From positions 1 through 64,000 of the forward strand of contig JAUIKM010000006.1 in NCBI GenBank assembly GCA_030430495.1: 64,000 nt of DNA. Reading direction: 5' to 3'. Both the position numbers and the translations under genes were made by a program. This DNA is from a bacterium (GTDB taxonomy: Bacteria; Bacteroidota; Ignavibacteria; Kapaibacteriales; UBA7675). Numbering within the stretch: position 1 is the stretch's first letter; every line of letters begins with the position of its first letter. Positions 765-54,277 of the stretch are shown one piece after another. Under the pieces are notes generated by a model that ran no database searches, was not told the DNA's origin, and saw only the letters and a program-made list of their open reading frames with translations.

Positions 765-3700
765 TTACTGAACTGACTTTTTCAATGATTTAACAATTGC
801 CCTCGCCGAAATAACACTAGGATGGGAATAAGGAAAATTTGCCTCTAGTATATGGAGAGCTTTGTTGGCTTGTTTTAGTGCCGCTTTATAATCATTTTGT
901 TCATTAAGTACAACTGCCAGGTTGTAATACCCCGTCGCAGTCCTAGGATGATCTAGACCAAAATTTGTTTCGTCAGAGGCAATCGCTTTTTCCAAGAGTT
1001 CTCTTGCTTTTGCGAAATCACCTAAGTTTCTCAGTATCATGGCAAGGTTGGAGTATCCTGCCGCGATCCTAGGATGATCAGAACCAAATTTTGCTTTATC
1101 AGAGGCAATCGCTTTTTCCAAAAGTTCTCTCGCTTTTGTGAAATCGCCTAAGTCGCTTAGAAGTTTTGCAAGATTAGAGTATCCAGTTGCGGTCCTAGGA
1201 TGGTCGGGACCGAAATTCGTTTCATCAGAGGTAATCGCTTTTTCCAAAAGTTCTCTTGCTCCTGCAAAATCGTCTAAGTCTCTTAAAATCATGGCCAGGT
1301 TGTTATACCTCGTTGCGGTCCTAGGATGGTCAGGACCGAAATTCGCTTCATCAGAGACAATCGCTTTTTCCAAAAGTTCTCTTGCTCCTGCGAAGTCGCC
1401 TAGGTCACTCAGTACCATTGCAAGATTAGAGTATCCAGTTGCGGTCCTAGGATGGTCAGGACCGAAATTCGCTTCATCAGAGACAATCGCTTTTTCCAAA
1501 AGTTCTCTTGCTCCTGCGAAGTCGCCCAGGTCACTTAGTACCATTGCAAGATTGGAGTACCCCACCACGGTACTAGGGTGATCGGGATCGAAATTGTTTT
1601 TATGGGAGGCAAGCTCCTTTTCCAAGAGTTCTTTTGCTCCCTCATAATCGCCCAAGTCTCTGAGAGTCATTGCAAGTTTGGAATACCCTGAAGCTGTAAT
1701 GGGATGTTCGCTGCCAAAGTTTACTTCATCGGAAGCAATCGCTCTTTCTAATAACTCTTTAGCGTACATGTAGTTGCCCAACAAGTGGTTTACAGAGGCA
1801 AGGCTTTTATACAAACTGGTTATCGATGAATTCTCACTTCTAGGAAACAGTCGTACAATTGCATTTCCGTAGGGCACATATTCCATTTTCGTAACTGGAT
1901 TGTCGTGTAAGTCGTCCATAACCAAGAGCGAATCAACTATTTGAATCAAGTCGATTATGTCTTCAGGTTCTATCTGCAGTTTCTTTTTTGCTACTTCGTT
2001 TACAATGCGGTGCATTTTGTAGCTGTCATTGTCACGACCAAGCCACCCTTTTCTAGCAACTTCTTCAAGCAAATCGGCAAACCCCTCAGCTCTTTTGCTT
2101 TTGCCTGATAAGAGTAAAGTTTTCAATAATTCGAATGAACAAAATTGGGCTGGCAAAGCAACAAAATGCTTCAACAGCCAAATTTCATCTTCCTCCAGAT
2201 CACTGAAGTCAAAAGTCGCCTCTAAGTACCATCCAATTCTCTCAATTTTTGATCGATTGCTGTGAGCAGTAGTCACATTCGCTCGTACATTTTGCTCAAT
2301 AGCAGTTAGCAATTCAGAACTTGTCAAGCGTTGACGTTGTGCTGTTCGCGCAAGAATTTCAACAACTAGGGTATGATATCCCACCGTTTCAACTATCTTA
2401 AGAATTTCCTCATTGTCAGTAATGCGACTGCAATAAAGCTTGAACAGCTCGACAGCACTTTTGGGATCTAGAGTATCTAGCAGTAACGTCTCCATTCCAA
2501 ATATTTCTTCGCGTGAAGTAATTATTAGATGCCAATCTGGTTGAGCTGGTAATATATCGATGTAGTTTTCAATAGCACTAGTGGCATTATCAATTACTAA
2601 GAGTTTTGGAGCAGCAGACAAAGCACGAAGCGCGCGGATTATACTATGAAAAACGGAAATGTTCTCACCTTCTAGCTCCTGCAAATTTAATGACTCCCTT
2701 AAATCAACATTCTGAGCGAAGTCATGGACTATATCTTGCTCATTTTGCGTAATCCAGGCAATATGCTCATAGTCAGCAAAATATTCGAACAAATATGCCG
2801 CTGCCAATGTGGTTTTACCTATACCACCCAACCCAACGATGGAAACGGATCTTTTACTCTCAAACAACAATTTGTGTATTTGTTGCAAATCAAGATTTCT
2901 ACCAACCAAATCAGAAGGACGTATAGAGGGAATCGGGGTCAGCTGTTTTGGTATTTTTATCGCACCGGGATAAGCATAGTTAATATTTGATCCAGTAGAA
3001 TTCCCAATAATGAGGCCAAAATTCTCGGAATTGGCTGCAACATTGGAGGTGTCGCTATTTTTCTGAAGAAGTGAAGAAAGCGCTTTAAATCTAATTCTAA
3101 CAACTGTGAAACTACTTCCTATCTCTTCAAATGTAATGCTATCCTCACCATATTTGACTACGTAGTCTCTTACGATGTCAAATCCTCGTCCAATTCCTTC
3201 AAATGTCAATTGGCTAGACAGATAATAAGAAAGCAAATCATTTTTTGGCTTGGATATCGTCGTGCTGTTGTTAAGTAGGTATTCCCAATTTAGATCTTTG
3301 GGGAAACACCCGGGATTTTTGATTTCAATGCACTCAGTTAAAATACTAACTTGTACAGGAAACCGCTCACCATAATCTCTGTGTGCAAATGCATTTGAGA
3401 TTAACTCTCTAATAACTACTAGATCATCATCTCGAAATTCAGACTTAATTCGGTTGCCTTTTGAGTCAAAATATGAAAAGTCCAGATTGTCAATAATAAG
3501 ATCCCGGAATTTGTTAATTTGATGTGATATGGGACCTCTAACTTCAGTGCTCTTTTGGAAGTCTTTTGAAGGTCCAACGACAAATTTTGACTTCAAATAG
3601 GGGTATAAAACTTCCGGGTGTTTGTGAAAACCAATAACAGCGGATTTGTGTATTTTTTTTTGCCCATATCTTACTATAGGAGAGAATAGACCCAGGACTT

Positions 3701-4655
3701 CAAGCTTTCCAAGAATGTCAAGGTCTTCCCATTCGCTTTCTATTCTTCTTTCTCGCTTTTCCTTTTCAAAAAAATCATTAACTAAGTTCATGTCTAAATC
3801 TTCAATACTAGCACTTTCGCAAGGATGCTCCCTTTCATCTGTCGTTTCATATAATACCCTCAGTTCGTCTATGTTTCTTACAAAGTGAGATTCAGGATGA
3901 TCGATGCTTGGGGTGTTGTTTTGTATTTTTCCGCTTTTGTTCTTCGCTATCCAAATACTTTGATCGGCATTAGAAACCTTATATTTTGGTGTCTGTGTAT
4001 ACGCATCAAATCTCCCCTGGGCAAAGACACTCTTTATATACTCGGAAAGATCTTTAGCATAAATGTAACCATCTTCTGTAGGTTTTCCACTTAATCCGGT
4101 TTTGAGTGCTTCATAGAATATTTTGGTGTATACACTGCCGGTACCATCTTCCATCTCATGGCTTAGTTCGACAGCTGACGATGATGACAGTATCATGTAG
4201 CCTTTTGGGAGGTCAGACACGTCTTTGTGAACAGATACATCCACTTCACCTTTTGCCAAGTTGCCACTGTAACAAGCATCTATAATTATTATGGCCTTCT
4301 TTACTTGATAGTTGTCAAACTCGTTTAGAAGATTGTCAAACGGGTAGTATGATCGGGAGTCACTATCTCCAAATTGTAGATAATATCTGTTGTTCCTTTC
4401 TATTCCGTGACCCGAGTAGTAAAATATTAGCTGGTTGGCACGATCCCAATCTTGTAGGAATTCGTCAAGTTCATTTCCGAAGGTCTGCTTGTTTTGGCAA
4501 TTCAGAATAAATTTTGACTCAGCTTGATGACATTGACCAATCTCATTGTCCAATAAAACCGAAAAAATGTTAACTACATCTCTTTCTCCGGCTCTTAAAC
4601 GGTTTGCAAAGCCATTCACTGCAAATGTAACTCTTTGCGATAATTTAATTTCCAT
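765..4655 (-). CDS. Caspase-like/HATPase/NB-ARC/TPR conflict protein (NLR-like STAND ATPase)
   Basis: A large modular protein of 1,296 aa. Residues 1-250 form a caspase-like (C14) protease with its dyad: His83 in YYSGHG and Cys128 in DACYSG. Residues 385-560 form a HATPase_c_4-like domain of the kind seen in AlbA/RecG-C-like proteins (RELISNAFAHRDY at 416-428, then IEIKNPG and GIGRG), preceded by a possible winged helix. An NB-ARC STAND ATPase follows (Walker A GLGGIGKTT at 608-616; Walker B LLVIDNA). The C-terminus has about eight 42-residue TPRs of the kinesin-light-chain type, two nearly identical. I chose ATG 4655 because it overlaps the stop of the upstream gene (ATGGAAATTAA), giving translational coupling; an in-frame start at 4736 would overlap that gene by 92 bp. 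Expected role (family inference): TPRs sense an invader, NB-ARC oligomerises, the caspase executes. Function of the HATPase domain is unknown. Confidence 0.85.
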   Translation of the reverse strand: MEIKLSQRVTFAVNGFANRLRAGERDVVNIFSVLLDNEIGQCHQAESKFILNCQNKQTFGNELDEFLQDWDRANQLIFYYSGHGIERNNRYYLQFGDSDSRSYYPFDNLLNEFDNYQVKKAIIIIDACYSGNLAKGEVDVSVHKDVSDLPKGYMILSSSSAVELSHEMEDGTGSVYTKIFYEALKTGLSGKPTEDGYIYAKDLSEYIKSVFAQGRFDAYTQTPKYKVSNADQSIWIAKNKSGKIQNNTPSIDHPESHFVRNIDELRVLYETTDEREHPCESASIEDLDMNLVNDFFEKEKRERRIESEWEDLDILGKLEVLGLFSPIVRYGQKKIHKSAVIGFHKHPEVLYPYLKSKFVVGPSKDFQKSTEVRGPISHQINKFRDLIIDNLDFSYFDSKGNRIKSEFRDDDLVVIRELISNAFAHRDYGERFPVQVSILTECIEIKNPGCFPKDLNWEYLLNNSTTISKPKNDLLSYYLSSQLTFEGIGRGFDIVRDYVVKYGEDSITFEEIGSSFTVVRIRFKALSSLLQKNSDTSNVAANSENFGLIIGNSTGSNINYAYPGAIKIPKQLTPIPSIRPSDLVGRNLDLQQIHKLLFESKRSVSIVGLGGIGKTTLAAAYLFEYFADYEHIAWITQNEQDIVHDFAQNVDLRESLNLQELEGENISVFHSIIRALRALSAAPKLLVIDNATSAIENYIDILPAQPDWHLIITSREEIFGMETLLLDTLDPKSAVELFKLYCSRITDNEEILKIVETVGYHTLVVEILARTAQRQRLTSSELLTAIEQNVRANVTTAHSNRSKIERIGWYLEATFDFSDLEEDEIWLLKHFVALPAQFCSFELLKTLLLSGKSKRAEGFADLLEEVARKGWLGRDNDSYKMHRIVNEVAKKKLQIEPEDIIDLIQIVDSLLVMDDLHDNPVTKMEYVPYGNAIVRLFPRSENSSITSLYKSLASVNHLLGNYMYAKELLERAIASDEVNFGSEHPITASGYSKLAMTLRDLGDYEGAKELLEKELASHKNNFDPDHPSTVVGYSNLAMVLSDLGDFAGARELLEKAIVSDEANFGPDHPRTATGYSNLAMVLSDLGDFAGARELLEKAIVSDEANFGPDHPRTATRYNNLAMILRDLDDFAGARELLEKAITSDETNFGPDHPRTATGYSNLAKLLSDLGDFTKARELLEKAIASDKAKFGSDHPRIAAGYSNLAMILRNLGDFAKARELLEKAIASDETNFGLDHPRTATGYYNLAVVLNEQNDYKAALKQANKALHILEANFPYSHPSVISARAIVKSLKKSVQ

Positions 4656-5031
4656 TGCTGAGCCTTGAGGATTGCAACGAGATTGGAATTTTAACGTCAG
4701 TTTTTTGCTCGATGGCAAGTCTGAGAATAGATTCAAATTCTTTCTTATCCATCCCTTCTTTCTTGTATGTAGTATTGCCTATTTTGAGGCTAATTGAATA
4801 TTTAGGATACCTTGACCTCCAATAGTCCAGTACCGCTATTAGTGAGCTTATAGCAGTTAGTCCGAGAGTAACTATTCCAATCGCGAAAGTAAGATCACCT
4901 TTTGTACCATCCTTTACTTCCATACTTGTTTGAGCCACAATTGGAGTTTCGTCATTAATCGTTTCTGCAAGTGAAACTATGGCAATAGAATCTTCTGCAG
5001 TCAGAGTATCAATAAATTCGATTGTGACCAT
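4645..5031 (-). CDS. Small single-span membrane protein, EACC1-like partner of the caspase protein
   Basis: A 128-aa protein with a short polar N-terminal half, one transmembrane segment (about residues 47-68, LTFAIGIVTLGLTAISSL then IAVLDYW), and a C-terminal half with a beta-hairpin/helix pattern (SISLKIGNTTYKK, EFESILRLAIEQ). This is the layout of the effector-associated constant component EACC1, described by comparative genomics in bacterial STAND conflict systems, usually next to a caspase or trypsin effector. The assignment rests on architecture and neighbourhood, not on a profile search. Its stop codon overlaps the start of the caspase/NB-ARC gene by 11 bp, so the two are almost certainly co-translated. 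It could anchor the complex at the inner membrane. Confidence 0.6.
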   Translation of the reverse strand: MVTIEFIDTLTAEDSIAIVSLAETINDETPIVAQTSMEVKDGTKGDLTFAIGIVTLGLTAISSLIAVLDYWRSRYPKYSISLKIGNTTYKKEGMDKKEFESILRLAIEQKTDVKIPISLQSSRLSNGN

Positions 5032-5468: not shown

Positions 5469-6674
5469 TCACTTTCTCGTTCCCCACGCCCTCAAAAACT
5501 CACTCTTCGTCACCTTCTCCGTTAGCTTGATATACTTCTTCATCGTGCGCATGTCCTTATGACCGGTGATCCGCATCAGCACTTCCGGCCGTACGCCTTT
5601 TTCCAGCGACAAAGTCACAAAGGTTCGACGCCCTGTGTGCGTCGTGATCAAATCGTATTTCGGTACAACTCTTTCGATCCGCGTAGGTCCGCGATGCTCA
5701 ACCATCAGCGTCGGCTCGTCGATTCCAGCCAATTCACACAATTGCCGGATGAGTTTGTTGGCCTGCTTGTTGACGGGAGCTGCAAAACCATTTGCGGGGC
5801 AACGCTTCAGAATCTCACGCGCCTGCGGCATCAGCGGAAGTTTGAGATTGTCGCTGGTTTTGACGGTATTGACAATCAGCATGTCGTCTTTGAGATTGAC
5901 GGGGCGTAGTTTGACGACATCACTATAACGCAGGCCAGTGTAGCACAACAGTAAGAAGATGTCGCGGATGCCGGAGAGTCGGTCATCTGTCGTAATCTCG
6001 GCTTCATGGATGAGTTCGAGTTCTTCCATTGTCAAAGCAACCTGGACAGAATCTTCCGACAGCCGTTTGAACTTCTTGAACTCCGGATTGACCTCAATTC
6101 CACGCCCGACGCACCAATTCAGAAAAGCCGTGATGGTTTTGATCTTGTTGCCGACTGTGTTGGTCTTGGCTCCGAGTCCGAGTCCGAAGGCGTAGGCAAC
6201 GAACTTATCGTAGAAGGTGCTGTCCATTGTCTCCAGGGAAAGCGTGTGTTTGGTTGTTTCCTGGAACTTCTTCAAATAGTTGACCGTGGTGCGGTAGTTC
6301 TCGATCGTGTTTGGTCGGCGTTTGGATTTGGCACTTTGAATGAACTCTTCGAAGTAGTCGAAGAACGAGCCATTTTGTGTTTGATTCCGCTGCAGTTCTT
6401 CGCGGATGAGTTGCGTTGTTGGTGTCTGATGTCGTAGACGCATCTCGCGATAGATGCGGCGGACACGATCTTCGAGTTCATCGATCCGCAGATTGATTTC
6501 GGCGCTGCCTTTCATGGTCTTTTTGACGCGTTTGCGGTTTTGATCCCAATTGCGGGCCTGGATCTTTTCGCCGGTAGAAAGGCGCAGACGTTTGTTGTCG
6601 AAAGTGGCGTCGAGCATGATGTATTGCAGGTCGTCTTCGTAGACCTTGTTGTCAAGTCTGAATCGTACGTTCAT
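5469..6674 (-). CDS. Tyrosine recombinase/integrase, Bacteroidetes mobile-element type
   Basis: A 401-aa site-specific recombinase. It has an N-terminal Arm-DNA-binding-like domain (MNVRFRLDNKVYEDDLQYIM), a SAM-like core-binding domain (about 95-200, FFDYFEEFIQSAK) and a C-terminal catalytic domain. Catalytic residues are visible: Arg in TGLRYSD, His-x-x-Arg in HTGRRTF, His in GHKDMRT and the nucleophile Tyr in MKKYIK. The frame is open further upstream to 6776, but the family begins at MNVRF, so I start at 6674. It reads toward the caspase operon and probably moved this island; the degraded insertion sequences and lower GC fit that. No attachment-site repeats could be identified by eye. Confidence 0.9.
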   Translation of the reverse strand: MNVRFRLDNKVYEDDLQYIMLDATFDNKRLRLSTGEKIQARNWDQNRKRVKKTMKGSAEINLRIDELEDRVRRIYREMRLRHQTPTTQLIREELQRNQTQNGSFFDYFEEFIQSAKSKRRPNTIENYRTTVNYLKKFQETTKHTLSLETMDSTFYDKFVAYAFGLGLGAKTNTVGNKIKTITAFLNWCVGRGIEVNPEFKKFKRLSEDSVQVALTMEELELIHEAEITTDDRLSGIRDIFLLLCYTGLRYSDVVKLRPVNLKDDMLIVNTVKTSDNLKLPLMPQAREILKRCPANGFAAPVNKQANKLIRQLCELAGIDEPTLMVEHRGPTRIERVVPKYDLITTHTGRRTFVTLSLEKGVRPEVLMRITGHKDMRTMKKYIKLTEKVTKSEFLRAWGTRK

Positions 6675-7071
6675 GATATACGCTGGTGATAAGCGTTTTT
6701 GAGACTGCCGGGAAGGATGATGACAAGATAGTACAATTCTGAACACTGACAATATTACTGACAGAAATCGAGACACAACCAGGAGTTGTTAAGTTCAGAT
6801 AAGAATGCGTGCTCCACTTGAGACTAGTATTATCAGTGCTTTGTAATCATTTGGGTTTAGGTGTGTTCGAGGGCATTCAATCCGGATAACTCCACGCAGG
6901 AGTGCGCCCAAAAATGTTCATCCCCCGCTCACAGCCCCAGATCGCTCGTTAACCAGCAGAACCTGCCCGTTCAAGAGGCGCCCTGCCGCTCGCACTCTAC
7001 GCCGGGTAAAGTATTTTCATTCTGTCGCCGCCTGCTCATCGCGCCGGCCTGAAAACGCCTGCGCCAACACC
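6675..7071. other. Non-coding stretch between integrase and RNase R gene
   Basis: No credible gene. This is the likely boundary between the island and the housekeeping region: composition shifts to GC-rich at about 6880. The promoter of the integrase should lie just right of 6674. No repeats or terminator stand out. Confidence 0.4.
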
Positions 7072-42553: not shown

Positions 42554-44528
42554 TGGAATCCTCCGCTAGATTAAGTATTGCGTGTGTCGTTTGTTTGCAC
42601 AAAATGGGCGTCGCGGTGGACGCGGCTCGCGGCACAACAGCTTCGACAAAAAGAATATTCGATTGGATCTTGCAGCCGCAGCAGTGCTGGGGGCTGAGCG
42701 CTACCCGGAAGTCTTGGCCTGCCGCAAGCCGATAAAATACGGATTTTTTGGCAGCCCCGACGTTGGATTTGCGTGCGGATGCAAAAGCGGTGCGGGTTGA
42801 ATATTCTGGAACGGCGTCCGCACTGCCTGTCTTTGCCCGACTCTTGTTTGTCATCGGGATTGGGGTTCGGGTCTGTCCGGCCGGGCGTTGCTCCGCGCGT
42901 GCATGTTGAAGTGTTTGCCGACCGAACGACTTCCTGGCAGCCGCCGATAATTACCTGACATTCTTGTTTGTCACTGCGTTTTCAGGTTTTGTGTTGCGCG
43001 GTTTGGCGTCGCTTCGCGCTTGAATGTTGCTGTGTTTGCGGCTGAACGACTTGCGGATGACCGTTGACATCTGCTCGATTTTGGATTGTCGCGGCGTTGG
43101 AAGGATTTGAGCAGCGGGGATTGGCGTTGTTTGGCGCGTGCATGTTGAAGTGTTTGCCGACCGAATGACTTCCTGGCCGCCGCCGATAATTACATGATAT
43201 TCTTGTTTGTCACTGCGTTTGCAGGTTTTGTGTTGCGGAGGTTTGGCGTCGCTCCGCGCATGCATGTTGCTGTGTTTGCGGCTGAACGACTTGCGGATGA
43301 CCGTTGACATCTGCTCGATTTTGGATTGTCGCGGCGTTGGAAGGATTTGAGCAGCGGGGATTGGCGTTGTTTGGCGCGTGCATGTTGCTGTGTTTTGGGT
43401 CAGCCGGATTTCCTGAGAGCCGCTGATAATTACCTGACATTCTTGTTTGTCACTGCGCTTGCAGGTTTTGAGCTGCGGAGGTTTGGCGTCGCTTCGCGCT
43501 TGAATGTTGAAGTGTTTTCGGTCAGCTGGATTTCCTGAGAGCCGCTGATAATTACCTGACATTCTTGTTTGTCACTGCGTTTGCAGGTTTTGTGTTGCGG
43601 AGGTTTGGCGTCGCTTCGCGCTTGAATGTTGCTGTGTTTGCGGCTGAACGACTTGCTGGCCGCCGCCGATTTTTACATGACATTCTTGTTTGTCACTGCG
43701 TTTGCAGGTTTTGAGCAGCGGGGTTTGGCGTTGCTTGGCGCGTGCATGTTGTTGTGTTTGCGGCTGAACGACTTGCGGATGACCGTTGACATCTGCTCGA
43801 TTTTGGATTGTCGCGGCGTTGGAATGATTTGAGCAGCGGGGATTGGCGTTGTTTGGCGCGTGCATGTTGCTGTGTTTTCGGTCAGCTGGATTTCCTGAGA
43901 GCCGCCGATAATTACCTGACATTCTTGTTTGTCACTGCGATTGCAGGATTTGAGCAGCGGGGTTTGGCGTTGTTTCGCGCTTGAATGTTGCTGTGGTTGC
44001 GGTCAGCTGGATTTCCACTCAACGCAGTAAAACTGAAATCTCGCCCGCTTGTCCGCGCAGCTTGCCCGTTGACGTTTTTGCGCTTGTGTCGGCGGCGCGG
44101 AGGTGGCATGTTGCACGGGTCGAATCAACCGGAAGGTTCGGCCGCGCCGCGCCTGTGACGTCCCGCTGGAGGGACGGGTATGTGTGAAAAAATTAACCGC
44201 GAATTTTGCGGCCGGGAGGGCTGTGTTCGTTGGTGATGGAGATGAAGAAAAATTGGACGGGTGACGGCGGGGGAGGGGGCCCCATTTTGGGGCCAAATCC
44301 GGCGGCGCGCCAGGTTTGAAGTCTTCGAACTTCAGTTCTCAGTCTTTCAGTTTAACGCGGCGGACGCCGGAATGAGCGAAGCTGACGACGTCAACCCGCG
44401 TTCAGAATGAGTCGCAGTGCCGGATAGCACGCGCCTTCAACCCTGCGCTTTCATCGATGACCAGATCGATTCTAAGTCAATCGTCAAATTGCCTTGAAAT
44501 CGCTTGCCGGTGTTTTAGCGGCATTTGT
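42554..44528. other. Two-kilobase non-coding region dominated by a mosaic repeat array
   Basis: No credible gene. Apparent frames on the minus strand through the array have no family signature and exist because the repeats have periods near a multiple of three. Outside the array, hairpins GTCCCGCTGGAGGGAC (about 44159) and GGCCCC-ATTTT-GGGGCC (about 44277) are present. The promoter of the next gene starts at about 44529. Confidence 0.6.
42820..44010. repeat. Mosaic array of about nine 120-bp repeats of two types
   Basis: Units of about 118-122 bp all end in (C/T)GCATGTTG or TTGAATGTTG. Type B contains ACATTCTTGTTTGTCACTGC; type A contains GACCGTTGACATCTGCTCGA and GATTGTCGCGGCGTTGG. Order from left: B, A, B, A, B, B, B, A, B, with partial units at both ends. 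The three type A units differ by only a few bases over 120 bp. Units share boundaries, as if shuffled by recombination. The array lies between the metalloprotease promoter and the first of two NB-ARC genes. It is not CRISPR: no constant repeat with unique spacers. Confidence 0.85.
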
Positions 44529-44590: not shown

Positions 44591-47346
44591 ATGGATATAG
44601 GCGCATTGGTCCAGCAGGGCATTGAACTTCTCAAAACAACCGGCCTGATGTTCAAAGACACCGCGGCGGCGGTCGCTCCGCTGATTGGCCCGGGCAAAGC
44701 ACTGTGGAATTGGGCCAGGAGCAAGTTTGCCACGAATAAACCGGCCCTCGAGAAACTTGAGCAGGTCGAGCAGGATCCTGAAAACGAGAGATTGCTCGGC
44801 AAGCTGGAAACTGAGCTGGAACATCACCTGGCCGATGATCCGGCTGCCCAAAGCGAACTAGCCGACCTGATTGCCGACCTGACCGAAGCGATGAAAAACG
44901 CACCTGCGGCAACACACAACTACATGCAGAACAACTCCAGCACCTACGGTCCGATTATCCAGAATTTCAGCGGCGGGACGTTTCACTACAACGTCGATAC
45001 AAAAAAAAAGCCCCCAAAAAACTGACGTCCTTTCCAACAGTTCATCCTGACGATCTGATTGGCCGTGCAGACGAACTGGCCGAGCTTACTTCACTGCTGG
45101 CCGCGAGAAGCGATAGTGTTCTGGTTAACGGCATGGGCGGCATCGGCAAGACCTCGCTGGCAGCGGCTTATGTTGCGCAGGAGTATGATAACTATCAACA
45201 CATTGCCTGGATCAGCAACAACTCCGCCGACATTGCCGACGACTTTGTGCAGAACCGCGATCTGCTGCAAAGTCTTGACCTCACTTCTTTAACCGGCGAC
45301 CGCGAAGTCATTTTTCACGCAATGCTGCACAAACTGCGCTCGATCGACGAACGGCCCAAACTCTTTGTAATTGACAATGCCGATGCTGAAATAGAGCGAC
45401 GCCTGCCGCAATTGCCCTCACAACCCAACTGGCACGTATTGATCACCTCGCGCGAGGAAATAGCCGGTACACATTCAATGCCGCTGGGATTTTTACAGGC
45501 CGAAGATGCGGTGAGGTTGTTTAAAAAACACTGCACGCGAATTAGCTCGGATAATGAGATAACGGCCATCGTTGAAACCGTCGACTACCACACCCTCACA
45601 ATTGAAATTCTGGCGCGCACGGCGCAATTGCAGCGCACGAATCTGAATGACTTGTTAAATGTAATCCGGAACGACGCCCGCGCCAATGTCAAGACGGCGC
45701 ACAGCAATCAGGCGAAGATTGAGCGGGTGCGGTCTTATCTGGAAACAATCTTTGACTTCAGCGGATTAAACGATAATGAACAGTGGTTGTTAAAACAGTT
45801 CGTGGCGCTGCCGCCTGAATTTCAATCTTACGAGTTGCTTGTTGAACTGATTGAACCCGAACAGTCCGATCGCGCCGAGATTTTTTCTGAACTGCTTGAC
45901 AATTTGGCGGGCAAGGGTTGGCTACTGAGCGACCCGAAAAATGACAGTTATAAGATGCATCGGGTTGTGCAGGAGGTCTTTGGCGCAAAGATGAATATAC
46001 AAGCTTCTGATATAAAGCCACTAATTGTTAAAGTAGGAAAGTTGTTGCAGGTTGATCAATCGCTAGACAATCCGGTCGACAAATTTGTTTGGATTCCATA
46101 TGGAGAGGCAGTTACCGCGCTGGTTGGGCAATTTGAAGGTCATAGGATGCAATTCTTGCTGCATAATCTGGGTGTAGTTTTAAAAAGTAAGGGAGAGTAT
46201 CACCGAGCCAGACAACTACTTGAGCGCGCCCGGACATCATTTGAGGAACAGTATGGGGTGGATAACATACAAACGACTACCTGCTGTTCAAACCTGGGGT
46301 TGGTGTTAAAAGACTTGGGCAAATACCAGGAAGCCAAAGTTCTTTTTGAGCATGCACTTGAGACTGACAAGGAGGTTTTAGGCGAGGAACACCAAATTGT
46401 GGGTATTCGCTACACTAATTTGGGACTTGTACTTAAGGACTTTGGAGATTACAAAGGCGCAAGAGTATTACTGGAGCGAGCGCTGGCCATCAACAAGGAA
46501 AAATTCGGCGAGAATCATCATTTGACAGCATCAAGTTATTCTAACCTGGGATTAACCTTGCAATTTCTGGGGGACTATGATGAAGCCAAAGTTCTTCTTG
46601 AACGCGCAGTGGTTTCAAACGTTAAGAACTTTGGATTGCGTCACCCGACGACTACTTCGAGTTATTCCAATTTAGCGTTAGTCTTGCAAGAGTTGGGTGA
46701 TTATGAAAAAGCCATGTTACTGCTCGAGTTCGTTCTAACTCAAGACTCGAAGACTTTTGGCGTGAATCATCCCATAACAGCTATCAGGTATTCAAATCTT
46801 GGAGAATTGCTTCGCAATGTGGGTGATCTGGATAGAGCAAGAAACTTGCTTGAAATTGCACTGGCTTCAACGGAGAACACGCTAGGTGCTGAACATTCAA
46901 CGATGGCCATCAGATACACCAACTTGGGATTGGTGCTTCAAGACCTAGGCGACTACAGTAAGGCGAAAGAATTCCTTGAACTGGCGGTATCAATAAACGA
47001 ACAACTGAATGGCAAAGAACATCCAGACACTGCAACCGCATATTCCAATCTGGGCTGGCTATTGCAAGAATTGGGCGACATCAATGGTGCCAAAGAAAAT
47101 ATCGAGCAAGCTGTAAAGCTCAGTAAAATGTCTTTAGGGAAAGATCATCCGAAGACTGCTGCAAAATTTCTCGGTCTGGCCCGGGTGTTGCTGGATTTCG
47201 GAGAGCTGAAGAGATCTTTGACCTTGGCTTCTCAAGCTTTGAAAGTCTTTGAAAACACGTTACCGAAAGAGCATCCAAACCTGAAGTATGCAAAAGAGGG
47301 AGTCGAACATCTTGAATCTCTGCTGAACGCCCAAACCCAAGAGTGA
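44591..47346 (+). CDS. NB-ARC/TPR conflict protein in two frames, joined by a -1 shift (NLR2)
   Basis: One gene, open as frame 1 from 44591 to a stop at 45023-45025 and continuing in the -1 frame from 45010 to 47346; together about 918 aa. The N-terminal helical domain (MDIGALVQQGIELLKTTGLM) and linker NNSSTYGPIIQNFSGGTF match the paralogue at 47651. The junction is an A AAA AAG heptamer (45004-45010); slipping -1 there gives KK then APKKLTSFPTVHPDDLIG, as in the intact paralogue (PPKKLTSFPTVHPDDLIG). NB-ARC follows (GMGGIGKTS; Walker B LFVIDNADA), then about nine TPRs. Start by homology to the paralogue. Alternatives are homopolymer mutation or sequencing error. The TPR part is AT-richer than the N-terminal part. 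Confidence 0.8.
45001..45021 (+). promoter_or_regulatory. A9-G-C5-A6 homopolymer tract with A AAA AAG slippery heptamer
   Basis: A9 (45001-45009), G, C5, A6. In frame 0 the codons AAA AAG occupy 45005-45010, giving the heptamer A AAA AAG in phase, the same sequence as the E. coli dnaX frameshift site. A -1 slip rejoins the long downstream frame exactly at a conserved sequence, and no nearby codon supplies a natural alternative start for that frame before the Walker A motif. Confidence 0.75.
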
Positions 47347-47650: not shown

Positions 47651-50059
47651 ATGATTGAGCCTGCCAAACTTTTGGACGACGCCGTTAAATTGATCAGTAT
47701 TGCCGCTGCTATTCTGAAGGACAACGCCGCGGCTGTATCACCGCTCAGGGAACCCGCTCAATCCCTCTGGAGCTGGCTTGAAGATCGGTTGTCCGGTGAC
47801 GATGCGGCGCTGGAGCTGCTGCGACAGATCAGACAGGCGCCCGCGAACCCCGAATTAGGGAAGCGCTTAAAGCAGGCCCTGGCACAACATCTTGCCGAAG
47901 ATCATGACAGCCGGGTCCAGCTTGTTAAACAGCTTGGTTATCTTGTTTATCTCACACAGCACGCTTCAGCCGCAACGCACAATCATATGGAGAACAACTC
48001 CAGTATTTATGGTCCGATCATTCAGAATCTCAACGGCGGCACGTTTAACTACTACGTCAACGCAGTTAAACATACGCCGCCCAAAAAACTGACGTCATTT
48101 CCCACGGTTCATCCTGACGACCTGATTGGCCGCACAAAAGACCTGGCCGAACTCACTGCGCTGCTGGCCCGGAACGGAAAAGTGGTCCTGGTTAACGGCA
48201 TGGGCGGCATCGGCAAGACCTCGCTGGCGGCGGCTTATATTGCGCAGGAGTATGACAACTATCAACACATTGCCTGGATTGCGCAAAGCGGCAAAGAATT
48301 CACAAAGGATAAACAAGACGACAAATCCGGCGATGTAGTTGATGCCTTTGTGCAGGATCGCGACTTAATACACAGCCTTGGCTTGCAGGAAATGAGCGGG
48401 AAACGCGAGGAAATCTTTCGCGCGATTCTGCGCGCTCTGCGCTCGATTAACGAACGGCCCAAGCTGCTGGTGATCGACAATGCCGACGCAAGTATTCAAT
48501 CTTACCTGAACGACTTGCCCGCGCCGCCCAACTGGCATGTGTTGTTAACTTCGCGCGAGGAGATCGATGGACCGAAATCTTTTCAACTGGGCTTTCTGGA
48601 AGATGTTGACGCCGTCAAGTTGTTTAAAATACACTGCTCGAGAATCAGCGATGACAAGAAAATCAAGACAATTGTTGAAACAGTCGATTACCACACTCTG
48701 ACCATTGAAATCCTGGCGCGTACGGCACAACGGCATCGAACCACATTTCCAGATCTGTTAAACGCCATAAAGAACAATGTGCGCGCCAATGTTCCCACGA
48801 AGCACAGTGATCTGGCAAGAATTGAACGGGTGCGAACTTATCTGGAGACCATCTTTGATTTCAGTCAATTGGATGAAAACGAGCGCTGGCTGTTAAAACA
48901 GTTCGTGGCTCTTCCGCCCGAGTTTCAATCTTATGAGTTGCTTGTTGAACTGATTGAACCTGAAGAGTCTGACCGCGGTCAGACCTTTTCTGAACTGCTG
49001 GAAAGTCTGGCCGATAAAGGTTGGTTGCTGCGTGATACGGAACGAGAAAAGTACAAAATGCACCGGGTGGTGCGCGAGGCGATCCAGGACAAACTGGAAA
49101 TTGCCCCGCTTGACATTGAGTCGCTGTTAACAAATGTGACGCGCAGACTTTCGGTGGACCAAACAAAGGACAATCCGGTCGATAAGTTTGTTTGGATCCC
49201 TTACGGAGAGGCAGTTGAAACATTGGTCGGGCAGTTTGAAGTTCCAATGGTAAGTCATCTGCAAAACAATCTGGGTTGGGTATTGCAGGATTTTGGAGCA
49301 TATTCCAAAGCAAAGGACTTGCTCGAACGCGCGCTGGCGTCGGATGAGAAAAATTTAGGTGCGGATCATCCGACAACGGCGACCAGTTGTTCGAATCTGG
49401 CTTTGGTGCTGCAAGATTTGGGCGACTACGAGAGTGCGAAGTCCCTGCTAGAACGCTCGCTGGCAACAAACGAAAAGAACCTTGGTGCTGATCATCCAAC
49501 GACGGCAGCCAGTTTTTCCAACTTGGCAGGTGTATTGCAATCTTTGGGCGATTACGCCGGCGCGAAGACCTTGCTCGAACGCGCGCTGGCGTCGGATGAG
49601 AAAAATTTAGGTGCGGATCATCCGACAACGGCGAGCAGTTGTTCGAATCTGGCTTTGGTGCTGCAAGATTTGGGCGAATACGAGAGTGCGAAGTCCTTGC
49701 TTGAACGCGCGCTGGCATCGTCTGAGCAGAATTTGGGTGCTGATCATCCGACGACGGCTGTCAGGTGTTCGAATCTGGCTTCGTTGCTGTTTGTTTTGAG
49801 CGAGTACGACCGAAGCAGGGAATTGACGGAGCGTACGCTGGAGATAGAAGAAAGAGCGTTTGGTACAGACCATCCTTCCACGGCATTAACATTTTCCAAC
49901 CTGGCTGTAGACCTTGAAAAACTCGGTGAGTTCAAAAAAGCCCTGTCTCTGGCCTCCAAAGCGCTGAGTGTATTCGAAAACAAGCTGCCCGCCGGCCACC
50001 CGCACATTGAAATGGCAAAACGACAAATCTCAGATCTGCAAGCCCAAAACCACAAGTAA
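47651..50059 (+). CDS. NB-ARC/TPR conflict protein, intact paralogue (NLR3)
   Basis: 802 aa in one frame. N-terminal helical domain (about 1-105, KLISIAAAILKDNAAAVSPL), linker NNSSIYGPIIQNLNGGTFNY, NB-ARC with Walker A GMGGIGKTS at 183-191 and Walker B LLVIDNADA, a winged-helix region (DFSQLDENERWLLKQFVALP), then about seven TPRs ending in MAKRQISDLQAQN. The TPRs are of the NLGADHPTTA kind and two 126-bp units are almost identical at the DNA level. It is a STAND ATPase, probably an anti-phage sensor; no effector enzyme is fused, so the N-terminal domain may recruit one. It has a 13-residue insertion after the Walker A region that NLR2 lacks. Confidence 0.88.
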   Translation: MIEPAKLLDDAVKLISIAAAILKDNAAAVSPLREPAQSLWSWLEDRLSGDDAALELLRQIRQAPANPELGKRLKQALAQHLAEDHDSRVQLVKQLGYLVYLTQHASAATHNHMENNSSIYGPIIQNLNGGTFNYYVNAVKHTPPKKLTSFPTVHPDDLIGRTKDLAELTALLARNGKVVLVNGMGGIGKTSLAAAYIAQEYDNYQHIAWIAQSGKEFTKDKQDDKSGDVVDAFVQDRDLIHSLGLQEMSGKREEIFRAILRALRSINERPKLLVIDNADASIQSYLNDLPAPPNWHVLLTSREEIDGPKSFQLGFLEDVDAVKLFKIHCSRISDDKKIKTIVETVDYHTLTIEILARTAQRHRTTFPDLLNAIKNNVRANVPTKHSDLARIERVRTYLETIFDFSQLDENERWLLKQFVALPPEFQSYELLVELIEPEESDRGQTFSELLESLADKGWLLRDTEREKYKMHRVVREAIQDKLEIAPLDIESLLTNVTRRLSVDQTKDNPVDKFVWIPYGEAVETLVGQFEVPMVSHLQNNLGWVLQDFGAYSKAKDLLERALASDEKNLGADHPTTATSCSNLALVLQDLGDYESAKSLLERSLATNEKNLGADHPTTAASFSNLAGVLQSLGDYAGAKTLLERALASDEKNLGADHPTTASSCSNLALVLQDLGEYESAKSLLERALASSEQNLGADHPTTAVRCSNLASLLFVLSEYDRSRELTERTLEIEERAFGTDHPSTALTFSNLAVDLEKLGEFKKALSLASKALSVFENKLPAGHPHIEMAKRQISDLQAQNHK

Positions 50060-50233: not shown

Positions 50234-50319
50234 CGGGTTTGCGGCTTGAAACTCAAGGACGCGGCTTGAAACTCGACGCTTTGGCTGAAAAATCGTGGAA
50301 TTCCGGCCCGGTTGTTGCG

Positions 50320-50605
50320 CTCGACGCTCCGCACAACTCCAAACCCGTCACATGCCGACTTGAGACTCCGCTCGAAACTCGAAACAACTCCAAACCCGTT
50401 ACATGCCGACTCGAGACTCCGCTCGAAACTCGAAACAACTCCAAACCCGTTACATGCCGACTTGAGACTCCGCTCGACGCTCCGCACAACTGAAAACCCG
50501 TCACATGCCGACTTGAGACTCCGCTCGACGCTCCGCACAACTGAAAACCCGTCACATGCCGACTTGAGACTCCGCTCGACGCTCCGCACAACTCCAAACC
50601 CGCCG
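50320..50605. repeat. 51-bp tandem repeat array, about 5.6 copies
   Basis: Units start at 50320, 50371, 50422, 50473, 50524 and 50575 (partial). Each contains CAACT(C/G)(C/A)AAACCCGT(C/T)ACATG and GA(C/G)ACTCCGCTCGA. Copies 2 and 3 share AAACTCGAAA in place of GACGCTCCGC. The 51-bp period is 17 codons, so frames stay open on both strands without implying a gene. The region has no other feature up to the start of the Clp-like gene at 50882. Confidence 0.9.
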
Positions 50606-50881: not shown

Positions 50882-53800
50882 ATGGATTTCAGCAGTATTT
50901 TTGCGTTTGTTCTGAGTACGGCCCTGTTGAGCGGGCTCCTCTATCTCCTGTATCGCCGCGGTATGTTAAAAATATCCGTCGGCGCGCTCGACGATACAAT
51001 CAAACCCGCCGCGCCGCCCGACGTGTATACACACGCCGCCAACTTAAACAACTTCTGGAGCCAACAGCCGCCGCTGGCCGATCTGCGCCGCAACGCCGAC
51101 TACAAAGCCGGCGTTGAACTGCTGTTAAAACAACAGCGCAACCCCGAAGAACTGGGCGAATACCTGGAAGGCGATAACGCCATCGCCGCGTGCATGGCCG
51201 CCGATGCGCTGCTGCAACTTAAACACAACCACGCCATCGCGTCGCTGTTAATGGTCCTGCGGGAATGGGATGCAGCCGTCCTGCGCGTCCTGCTGGACGT
51301 CATCGACAAACTGGCGGAAAAACAGGCCGTGGCATGGCGCGTGCTGGTGGCGATGACCGAATGCGACTACGGCGACAAAGAAGTTCGCCTGCTGCGCGCT
51401 TTTTTGTTAACGCGCAAGGCCAAAGGCGACAGCCTCTCCACCGACGACGTAGTGGACGGCATGGATTTTTCCACGCGCGCCTCGGTGATGATGCTGCTGC
51501 GCCAACTGGAGATCGAAGAACTCGAGCCGCTCGCGGATGCACTTACTCCGCCGCCGCAACCCAATACCGACCTCGATGAACTGGAAGAATTTGCCACGGT
51601 GCGCCGCCCGACGGACGCCGTGGAAGATGTTAACAGACATCTGATTGAACACCGCGCGCTCACGCAAACCGCGCAGAAAATTGAACAGGGTTTCAGCGCC
51701 GATGCGTCGCGCTCCGCCGTCGTGGTGGGTGAACCTGGCGTGGGTAAAAGTTCGCTCGTGGCGATTATCGAACGCCGTTTGTTAAGTAAAGGCTGGACCG
51801 TCGTGCGCGCCTCCGCGGCGCATATCATGTCCGGCCAGAAGTACATCGGCGAGCTGGAGCAGCGCACGCTGCAACTGGTTGAGTCGCTGTGTGAAGCCGA
51901 AAACGTGCTGTGGATCATCGACAATATCCACGAGCTCTCGCTGGCGGGTAAACATCAGTTTTCCTCCTTTTCGATTCTCGACACGATCCTGCCCTACGTC
52001 GAACGCGGCGAACTTAACGTGCTGGGCGAGACGTCTTCGCGCGCCTGGGAACGCCTCGTGACCTCGCGTCCGCTGGTGCGCAGCGCCTTCGACGTGCACC
52101 GCGTGGAAGCGACGAACGAAAGCCAGACGCTCGATATTGTTAAAACCTGGGTGCGCGCTTATTCGCGCGGACGGCGCGACGCATTGTTAAGCGATAAAAC
52201 GATTGCCGAGGCGATGGAACTGTCGAATCAGTTCCTCAACCGCGACGCCGCGCCCGGCAATATCCTGCGTTTTCTGGACGTGACGCGCAGCGCCGTGGAA
52301 GCCGCCACGCCGGGTAAACAACGCGCCATAAACGCAGAAGATCTGATCGGCACGCTGTCCCAGGTGACCGGCCTGCCGCGCACAATCCTGGATGACCGCG
52401 CCGAACTCAACCTGGACGAACTGCGCGCCTTTTTTAACGAGCGCGTCTTCGGGCAGGAAGAAGCCGTCGACTGCCTGGTGGATCGCGTGGCGATGATCAA
52501 AGCCGGTTTAACCGATCCGACGCGGCCGCTCGGCGTCTTTCTCTTTGTCGGTCCGACGGGGACGGGCAAGACCGAGATCGCCAAGTCGCTGGCGCAATTC
52601 CTGTTTGGATCCGCCGAGCGCATGATCCGCCTGGACATGAGCGAGTTCGGCACACCCGAGTCGCTCGGCCGCCTGATGGGCGACAGCCGCGAGATAAGCG
52701 AAAACGTGTCGCTGACGCACGAAATCCGACAGCAGCCATTCAGTGTTGTGTTACTGGACGAATTTGAAAAAGCCGCGCCGGCGGTGTGGGACCTCTTTCT
52801 GCAGGTGTTCGATGACGGGCGTTTAACCGACCGCGGCGGCAGCACGGCGGACTTCCGCCACAGCATTATTATCATGACGTCCAATCTGGGCGCGGCCGGA
52901 GCGCGCGCGCGCATCGGTTTTGACCAGACGGCGGAAGACTTTGAGGCGGGGCGCGTGGAAGACGTCGTCGGACAGGTGTTCCGGCGCGAGTTTGTCAACC
53001 GCATCGACCGCGTGGTGGTGTTTCATCCGCTTAAACGCGAGATCATGCGCGACCTGCTGCACAAGGAACTGCACGCCGTGCTCAAACGCCGCGGCCTGCG
53101 TTCGCGCACCTGGGCGGTGGAGTGGGACGAATCCGCGATTAACTTTTTGCTGGAGCGCGGCTATACGGCCGACCTGGGCGCGCGTCCGCTTAAACGCGCC
53201 ATTGAGCGTTATCTGCTCTCGCCCTTGGCCAAAACGATCGTGGCGAACCAGTTCCCGGACGGCGATCAGTTTCTGCACGTGCGCGCCGCCAAAAACGACA
53301 AGTCGCTCGAAGTTGAATTCATCGACCCGGATCAGGACGCCGGCTCGCGCCAGGGCGAACTGTTCCCGTCATTTGAAGATCGCGCCGCGGACGACGGCAC
53401 CGAGCCGCGTACGCGCGACATGGTGATGGACGCACGCGGCACCGTCGCCGAAGTGGCGCACCTCTCCCTGAAAGTCTCCGAGCTCGACAGCCGCATCACG
53501 GCCCCCGAGTGGGAAGAAGCCAAGGAACGCGCACTGGCCGACGCCTCTTCGCCGGAGTTCTGGGAGTCCGAAGAGCGCTTTGAGGTGCTCGCCCGCGCCG
53601 AGTACATGGACCGCGTGGAAGAGGCGATGCGCACCGCGCGCCGTCTGCTGGAAAAACTGGCCGAAGAAGTCGAGGAGGGCAGCTACCCGCCGCGCCTGGT
53701 GCAGCGGCTGGCGCAGCAGGTCTACCTGCTCGGTCTGGCGCTCGACTGCCTGGAATGCGGCGAAGAACAGGACGCCTTTGTGCAGGTCGAAGCCGTGCGC

Positions 53801-54277
53801 GAGGGCGCCAAGCGCGCCGACGCCAACAATGAATTCGCCATGCGCATCGCCAAGATGTACTGGAATTGGGCAAAAAAACGCAATATGCGCATCGACGTGC
53901 TGGAGGAAGTCGGCGGCGAGGGCCGCGAGCCTTTCCGGCTGCTGATGGCCGTCTCCGGCTTCGGTGCGCTGCACATCCTGCGCCTGGAGCGCGGCCTGCA
54001 CGCCTTTGAACTGAACGGCGAAAAACGCAACGCCGAGCGTTCGATGGTGCGCGTGCGCGTCATGCCGCAGCCACTCGTGCAGAACGCACCCGATTACGAC
54101 GCACTGGCCGCCGCGCGCGCCGCGCTGGAGCAGGAAGACGACAAGGCCGCCAAAATTATCCGGCGCTACCAGAAAGAACCCACGCCGCTTGTGCGCGACG
54201 TGGAACGCAAGTGGCGCTCCGGCCGCCTGGACCGCGTGCTGGACGGCGAGTTCGACGTGATCGGCGCCGGGTCCTGA
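50882..54277 (+). CDS. Membrane-anchored Clp/Hsp100-type AAA+ ATPase fused to an RF2-like PCRF region
   Basis: 1,131 aa. An N-terminal membrane anchor (IFAFVLSTALLSGLLYLLY, residues 5-24) and a helical repeat-like region precede two AAA+ domains. D1: Walker A GEPGVGKSS 283-291, pore loop KYIGE at 320, Walker B WIIDNIHEL with Asn348 instead of the catalytic Glu. D2: Walker A GPTGTGKTE at 557, Walker B LLDEFEKA at 626-627 intact, no aromatic GYVG pore loop, and an IGF tripeptide (678-680) where ClpA keeps its ClpP-docking IGL. Residues 855-1075 resemble release factor 2 domain 1 plus PCRF (SSPEFWESEERFEVLA; MYWNWAKKRNMRIDVLEEVG; HILRLERGLHAFEL), without the GGQ catalytic domain. Probable unfoldase at the membrane or ribosome; function unknown. 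A clpP gene is not adjacent. Confidence 0.85.
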   Translation: MDFSSIFAFVLSTALLSGLLYLLYRRGMLKISVGALDDTIKPAAPPDVYTHAANLNNFWSQQPPLADLRRNADYKAGVELLLKQQRNPEELGEYLEGDNAIAACMAADALLQLKHNHAIASLLMVLREWDAAVLRVLLDVIDKLAEKQAVAWRVLVAMTECDYGDKEVRLLRAFLLTRKAKGDSLSTDDVVDGMDFSTRASVMMLLRQLEIEELEPLADALTPPPQPNTDLDELEEFATVRRPTDAVEDVNRHLIEHRALTQTAQKIEQGFSADASRSAVVVGEPGVGKSSLVAIIERRLLSKGWTVVRASAAHIMSGQKYIGELEQRTLQLVESLCEAENVLWIIDNIHELSLAGKHQFSSFSILDTILPYVERGELNVLGETSSRAWERLVTSRPLVRSAFDVHRVEATNESQTLDIVKTWVRAYSRGRRDALLSDKTIAEAMELSNQFLNRDAAPGNILRFLDVTRSAVEAATPGKQRAINAEDLIGTLSQVTGLPRTILDDRAELNLDELRAFFNERVFGQEEAVDCLVDRVAMIKAGLTDPTRPLGVFLFVGPTGTGKTEIAKSLAQFLFGSAERMIRLDMSEFGTPESLGRLMGDSREISENVSLTHEIRQQPFSVVLLDEFEKAAPAVWDLFLQVFDDGRLTDRGGSTADFRHSIIIMTSNLGAAGARARIGFDQTAEDFEAGRVEDVVGQVFRREFVNRIDRVVVFHPLKREIMRDLLHKELHAVLKRRGLRSRTWAVEWDESAINFLLERGYTADLGARPLKRAIERYLLSPLAKTIVANQFPDGDQFLHVRAAKNDKSLEVEFIDPDQDAGSRQGELFPSFEDRAADDGTEPRTRDMVMDARGTVAEVAHLSLKVSELDSRITAPEWEEAKERALADASSPEFWESEERFEVLARAEYMDRVEEAMRTARRLLEKLAEEVEEGSYPPRLVQRLAQQVYLLGLALDCLECGEEQDAFVQVEAVREGAKRADANNEFAMRIAKMYWNWAKKRNMRIDVLEEVGGEGREPFRLLMAVSGFGALHILRLERGLHAFELNGEKRNAERSMVRVRVMPQPLVQNAPDYDALAAARAALEQEDDKAAKIIRRYQKEPTPLVRDVERKWRSGRLDRVLDGEFDVIGAGS

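What the first reader, a model, noticed from the sequence alone, without database searches (positions are those of the whole stretch)
44591..47346. NB-ARC/TPR gene split exactly at an in-phase A AAA AAG slippery heptamer
Frame 0 ends 13 bases after the heptamer at 45004-45010. A -1 slip on AAA AAG moves into a 2.3-kb frame and restores the sequence KKLTSFPTVHPDDLIG found in the intact paralogue at 47651. The short product would be a free N-terminal adaptor domain (about 144 aa); the shifted product the full NLR. That would set a ratio of adaptor to sensor from one gene. Alternatively the A9 tract is a phase-variable switch, or transcriptional slippage occurs, or the assembly lost or gained one base.
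Basis: partly seen in the sequence, partly recalled or inferred. Interest (0 to 1): 0.82.

Follow-up and report, generated by a model that had tools for sequence, protein, structure and literature searches.

The report
Frame-broken bacterial NLR-like gene at A9
A bacterial immune-receptor-like gene has its reading frame broken by one base at a run of nine As; the break is real in this assembly, but it most likely reflects a recent one-base loss (or assembly slip) in a hypermutable spot rather than a built-in switch, although the A-run itself could let a fraction of full-length protein be made.

Summary
ATG 44591 opens a 144-codon frame that stops at 45023-45025. A_AAA_AAG lies at 45004-45010, and the -1 frame continues for 779 codons into NB-ARC/TPR that aligns with the intact paralogue at 47651. 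The frame break at a homopolymer is not coincidence, but the in-phase heptamer is not evidence: every A9 run contains one in any frame. Against programming: no SD-like element, no RNA fold above chance, no relative with a frame break at this site, and the paralogue alignment puts the missing base in the neighbouring C5 run rather than in A9. In 457 kb (322 genes) this is the clearest break between abutting coding frames, so the assembly is not generally poor. Both halves carry purifying selection (dN/dS about 0.2), so the break is recent or bypassed. Relatives do separate the N-terminal domain from NB-ARC/TPR, but as stop-start coupled ORFs with their own start; the window gene has no usable start and is the fused type. 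Best reading: a fused STAND gene with a recent one-base deficit in an A9-C5-A6 linker (real allele or assembly slip), possibly leaky through A9 slippage. Programmed recoding or phase variation remains possible; reads and mRNA tract lengths would decide.

The parts
44591..45025 (+). Frame-0 ORF: 144-aa product, helical bundle (residues 3-126) plus the linker motif NNSSTYGPIIQNFSGGTFHYN and tail VDTKKKPPKN
   Evidence: AlphaFold2 mean pLDDT 84.7, helices 3-126
45001..45009 (+). A9 homopolymer run
45004..45010 (+). In-phase A_AAA_AAG heptamer (automatic in an A9 run followed by G in this phase)
45011..45021 (+). C5 and A6 runs; alternative places for the missing base, C5 favoured by alignment with the paralogue
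45023..45025 (+). TGA stop of frame 0; overlaps CTG 45022 of the -1 frame
45010..47346 (+). -1 frame: NB-ARC (about 45103-45627) and TPR array (to about 47266); no ATG/GTG/TTG before 45133
47651..50059 (+). Intact paralogue: same N-terminal domain, NB-ARC and TPR in one frame (802 aa); no A9 run in the linker
765..4736 (-). Third paralogue: caspase domain + HATPase_c_4 module + NB-ARC + TPR in one frame (1323 aa)

Best explanation
This is a fused-type bacterial NLR-like (STAND) gene: small alpha-helical N-terminal domain, an asparagine/glycine-rich linker, NB-ARC NTPase, TPR array. Its frame is broken by a recent net one-base deficit in a homopolymer-rich linker (A9-C5-A6). The deficit is either a real indel in this strain or an assembly slip. 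Shown: the break, its place, the intact paralogue, constraint on both halves, and the lack of stimulators. Inferred: that the loss is recent, and that in the cell the A9 run may leak, mainly by RNA polymerase slippage and to a small extent by ribosome slippage, so that mostly the 144-aa domain and some full-length receptor are made. I think any such leak is unselected rather than a programmed ratio device.
For: Break and coding switch. Paralogue alignment continuous across the break with a net 4-nt length difference, single-base gap placed in C5. dN/dS about 0.17-0.21 (NG86) with dS above 1.2 for the N part, NB-ARC and TPR part, and no other stop or frameshift downstream, so the break is young or bypassed. 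No SD-like element, hairpin energy no better than at random coding sites (-21.2 versus median -22.9 kcal/mol), folding z near 0; no Rfam match. No homologue with a frame break here: all are fused or stop/start-coupled. Singletons of this kind are mostly indels or sequencing errors (PMC3711429). Leak precedent: A9 cassette of magnesium chelatase 40% in E. coli (PMC3711429); A11 in tssM 20-25% by RNA polymerase slippage (PMC4256274); Thermus dnaX A9 50% (PMC1088944).
Against: In the 457 kb sampled it is the clearest abutting frame break, so general assembly error is not visible. Other A9 runs of the genome pass through long open frames. The break falls at a domain boundary where relatives naturally separate the two parts, as a functional split would.
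Confidence: 0.6

Rival explanations
1. Functional recoding: RNA polymerase slippage on A9 (with minor -1 ribosomal slippage on A_AAA_AAG) makes both a free 144-aa N-terminal domain and the full receptor, and the ratio matters.
For: A9 with A_AAA_AAG is a known slippery run; only tRNA-Lys(UUU) was found; reported efficiencies on A9-A11 are 20-50%; relatives express an N-terminal domain as a separate protein; tssM is a precedent in which both forms are needed.
Against: No conservation, no stimulators, no close homologue; split relatives use coupled starts instead; other A9 runs lie in intact genes of this genome.
Confidence: 0.17
2. Phase variation: the homopolymer length varies in the population and turns the receptor on and off.
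For: Poly-A runs lie preferentially near gene 5' ends and one such run varied about 1000-fold more often than the average point mutation rate (PMC2831843); the run lies in the 5' fifth of the gene; the rest of the gene is intact and constrained.
Against: One genome only, no length variants seen; A9 is short for a contingency locus; the lost base may not be in the A-run.
Confidence: 0.12
3. Translational coupling: the downstream frame re-initiates at CTG 45022, which overlaps the TGA, giving two proteins as in the split relatives.
For: Split relatives join as ATGA, GTGA or TAGATG at the same junction; CTGA has the same geometry.
Against: CTG is a poor start, there is no SD-like sequence, and the window's downstream part lacks the second linker motif that the split homologues carry after their start.
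Confidence: 0.05

Closest known systems
Bacterial STAND/NLR-like receptors with N-terminal effector or effector-associated domains (PMC8195603, PMC7159879)
   Same: Small helical N-terminal domain, central STAND NTPase (NB-ARC), C-terminal TPRs; a caspase-fused paralogue in the same window
   Different: The N-terminal domain matches no Pfam family above cut-off, and no named EAD was tested with its own profile
tssM1 of Citrobacter rodentium (PMC4256274)
   Same: Premature stop just after a poly-A run in the sense strand; longer product needs a changed number of A in the mRNA; no SD or structure
   Different: A11 not A9; there shown experimentally with a requirement for both forms; nothing of that kind is shown here
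E. coli dnaX-type -1 programmed frameshift on A_AAA_AAG
   Same: Same heptamer, in phase
   Different: dnaX has an upstream SD-like element and a downstream hairpin (own knowledge; the hairpin also in a title cited); neither is found here, and the direction is reversed (here the shift makes the long product)
   Same: Free N-terminal protein of 120-145 aa followed at once by NB-ARC/TPR
   Different: The downstream ORF has its own ATG and, in Bernardetia and the DUF4062-like sets, its own copy of the linker motif; the window gene has neither

Membership tests
NB-ARC/TPR STAND (NLR-like) protein | NB-ARC NTPase with P-loop | tested here: met
   PF00931 29.8 bits against cut-off 23.5; GMGGIGKTS P-loop; profile matches plant Roq1 NB-ARC
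NB-ARC/TPR STAND (NLR-like) protein | C-terminal TPR array | tested here: met
   TPR_10 248 bits, TPR_12 233 bits
NB-ARC/TPR STAND (NLR-like) protein | Anti-phage or immune function | not testable with these tools
   no assay; PADLOC matches are to TPR models only
Effector-associated domain (EAD) adaptor | Small non-catalytic alpha-helical domain at the N-terminus of a STAND protein | tested here: met
   helical bundle model, pLDDT 84.7
Effector-associated domain (EAD) adaptor | Sequence or fold match to a named EAD or Death-like domain | tested here: inconclusive
   no Pfam family above cut-off; only middling helical-bundle matches, best Z 5.6; EAD1-EAD12 profiles not available as such
Effector-associated domain (EAD) adaptor | Second copy of the same domain fused to an effector in the genome | tested here: not met
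   own-genome profile search finds the domain only in the split gene and its NB-ARC paralogue, to the limits of a two-sequence profile
Programmed -1 ribosomal frameshift | In-phase X_XXY_YYZ slippery heptamer | tested here: met
   A_AAA_AAG 45004-45010, but automatic for an A9 run
Programmed -1 ribosomal frameshift | Stimulatory SD-like element or RNA structure | tested here: not met
   none upstream; hairpin and z-score at chance
Programmed -1 ribosomal frameshift | Conservation of the frame break in homologues | tested here: not met
   all distant homologues fused or stop/start-coupled; no close homologue was found to test
Programmed transcriptional realignment | Homopolymer of 8-9 or more A/T at the break | tested here: met
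   A9
Programmed transcriptional realignment | mRNA of mixed tract length and two protein products | not testable with these tools
   needs RNA and protein data
Phase-variable gene | Tract-length variants within the population | not testable with these tools
   no reads; no second strain in the collections searched

The most novel reading that the evidence does not exclude
A-run slippage sets the ratio of free N-terminal module to complete receptor across this small NLR-like family. In the split gene, slippage joins the N-terminal domain to the sensor; in the caspase paralogue, which carries the only other A/T run of nine in the 199-kb contig between its caspase domain and the rest (window 3653-3661, minus strand), slippage would release a 380-397-aa caspase fragment. 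Relatives reach the same separation by coupled ORFs.
Probability: 0.08. Interest if true: 0.75.

Novelty: new member of a known kind. Interest (0 to 1): 0.27.

Why it matters
If recoding were real it would be a bacterial NLR-like receptor whose adaptor-to-sensor ratio is set by slippage, a cheap tunable immune set point; one literature search found no earlier case, which is thin evidence of absence. As it stands it is a useful caution: an in-phase slippery heptamer in an A9 run is guaranteed, so it cannot by itself argue for programming. The side result, that relatives repeatedly encode the N-terminal module and NB-ARC/TPR as coupled ORFs at the same junction, says that the two parts can work as separate polypeptides.

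Tried and rejected
Close homologues to test conservation: none in 40 relatives by DNA, 149 relatives by N-terminal profile, the species genome collection or viral contigs; later profiles gave distant relatives only. RNA families: none. PADLOC, NCBIfam and PHROGs: no named system for the split gene. Fold comparison of the N-terminal domain: only generic helical bundles (PDK N-terminal domain, invertase inhibitor; Z 5.6 or less), not interpreted. A first tRNA-Lys pattern search was too loose and was replaced by a BLAST search, which found tRNA-Lys(UUU) and no tRNA-Lys(CUU). The similarity of the G017 N-domain to the window's is weak (27% over 83 aa, E 0.061 for one comparison), so common ancestry of those two domains is suggestive only.

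Full report
What is there. Frame 0 from ATG 44591 gives a 144-aa product ending VDTKKKPPKN. The -1 frame continues to 47346 with NB-ARC and TPR and aligns along its length with the intact paralogue at 47651-50059. The downstream frame has no ATG, GTG or TTG before 45133, which lies in the P-loop, so without a frame change the receptor part has no normal start. A third paralogue, 765-4736 on the minus strand, is fused to a caspase domain and is in one frame.

Is it more than chance. A scan of coding potential over 457 kb of the same assembly (322 coding segments) finds this as the clearest case of two abutting coding frames without a start; the other flags were short upstream extensions, contig-edge segments or possible non-standard starts, two of which were looked at only briefly. 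The contig of 199 kb has only two A/T runs of nine, so the coincidence of break and homopolymer is meaningful. It does not tell indel from recoding, because homopolymers are hot spots for both. The in-phase heptamer adds nothing: I enumerated the three phases, and every A9 run carries an in-phase A_AAA_AAA or A_AAA_AAG.

Where is the missing base. The linker of the window gene is 4 nt shorter than that of the paralogue. A global alignment places a 3-nt gap before the A-run and a 1-nt gap in the C5 run; that solution also keeps the two prolines of the paralogue. The A9 run is therefore not the only, or even the preferred, site of the indel.

Age. Between the two paralogues dN/dS is about 0.2 for the N-terminal part, NB-ARC and TPR part, with dS above 1.2 (NG86). 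With such divergence a long-dead gene would have collected more stops; none is present. So the break is recent or bypassed. This is an inference, not a dated event.

Signals for programmed ribosomal frameshifting. None beyond the heptamer: no SD-like sequence in the 25 nt upstream, downstream hairpins no better than at random coding sites, folding z-scores from -0.5 to 0.4. The reported rate of A_AAA_AAG without stimulators in E. coli is about 0.3% (PMC4066793). A9 and A11 runs, however, give 20-50% in several bacterial systems, by RNA polymerase slippage where this was examined (PMC4256274; PMC1088944), and a magnesium chelatase A9 cassette gave 40% (PMC3711429); other work finds E. coli RNA polymerase slippage on poly-A weak (PMC6260861). 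So leaky full-length expression is plausible, of unknown size.

Relatives. No close homologue was found. Distant relatives fall into two types. Fused to some N-terminal domain: the paralogue, the caspase paralogue, L024, L026 (TIR-like N-terminus, my reading), L027, L030, L031, L098, L101 and Haliscomenobacter. L023 and L025 start just before the linker with no related upstream ORF identified. An Acaryochloris plasmid has a 145-aa ORF 12 nt before an NB-ARC/TPR ORF. In Bernardetia and f33 the first protein ends and the second starts with a copy of the linker motif. The window gene has one copy and no downstream start, so it is the fused type with a broken frame, not a member of the split type.

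N-terminal domain. The 144-aa product is predicted as a confident helical bundle followed by a low-confidence tail. No family or fold identifies it. 'Adaptor' fits its position and the EAD principle (PMC7159879, PMC8195603), but no second, effector-bearing copy was found in the genome.

Verdict. Real frame break, fused STAND gene, most likely a recent one-base loss or assembly slip in an A9-C5-A6 linker with possible leak; programmed recoding about 0.17, phase variation about 0.12. These are judgements, not computed probabilities.

Noticed in passing
window 3653-3661 (-): The only other A/T run of nine in the 199-kb contig lies on the sense strand of the caspase paralogue, between caspase domain and HATPase_c_4 module; a slip there would end the protein at 380-397 aa.
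   Followed up: partly
window 50882-54277 (+): ClpA/ClpB-like AAA+ protein with a C-terminal release-factor-like PCRF region (Pfam PCRF E 1.2e-6; prfB model E 1.8e-9), an unusual combination.
   Followed up: no
window 42884-44016: Tandem array of about 120-bp units with a 482-bp higher-order unit directly upstream of the split gene.
   Followed up: no
window 50318-50602: 51-bp tandem repeat, 5.6 copies, 92% matches, directly downstream of the intact paralogue.
   Followed up: no
window 5469-6776 (-): Tyrosine integrase with Arm-DNA-bind_5 domain beside the caspase paralogue, which has a low coding score for its length under the contig's codon usage; possible mobile island.
   Followed up: no
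L033-L040, L044: In several of these, a DUF4062/NPHP3-like effector ORF overlaps or abuts an NB-ARC ORF, both carrying a similar asparagine-rich linker motif at the junction; DUF4062 has been described as a TIR-like NADase (PMC13174449).
   Followed up: partly
L085:700-800: In-frame TAA next to an A-run in an otherwise coding frame near a contig edge of the same genome.
   Followed up: no
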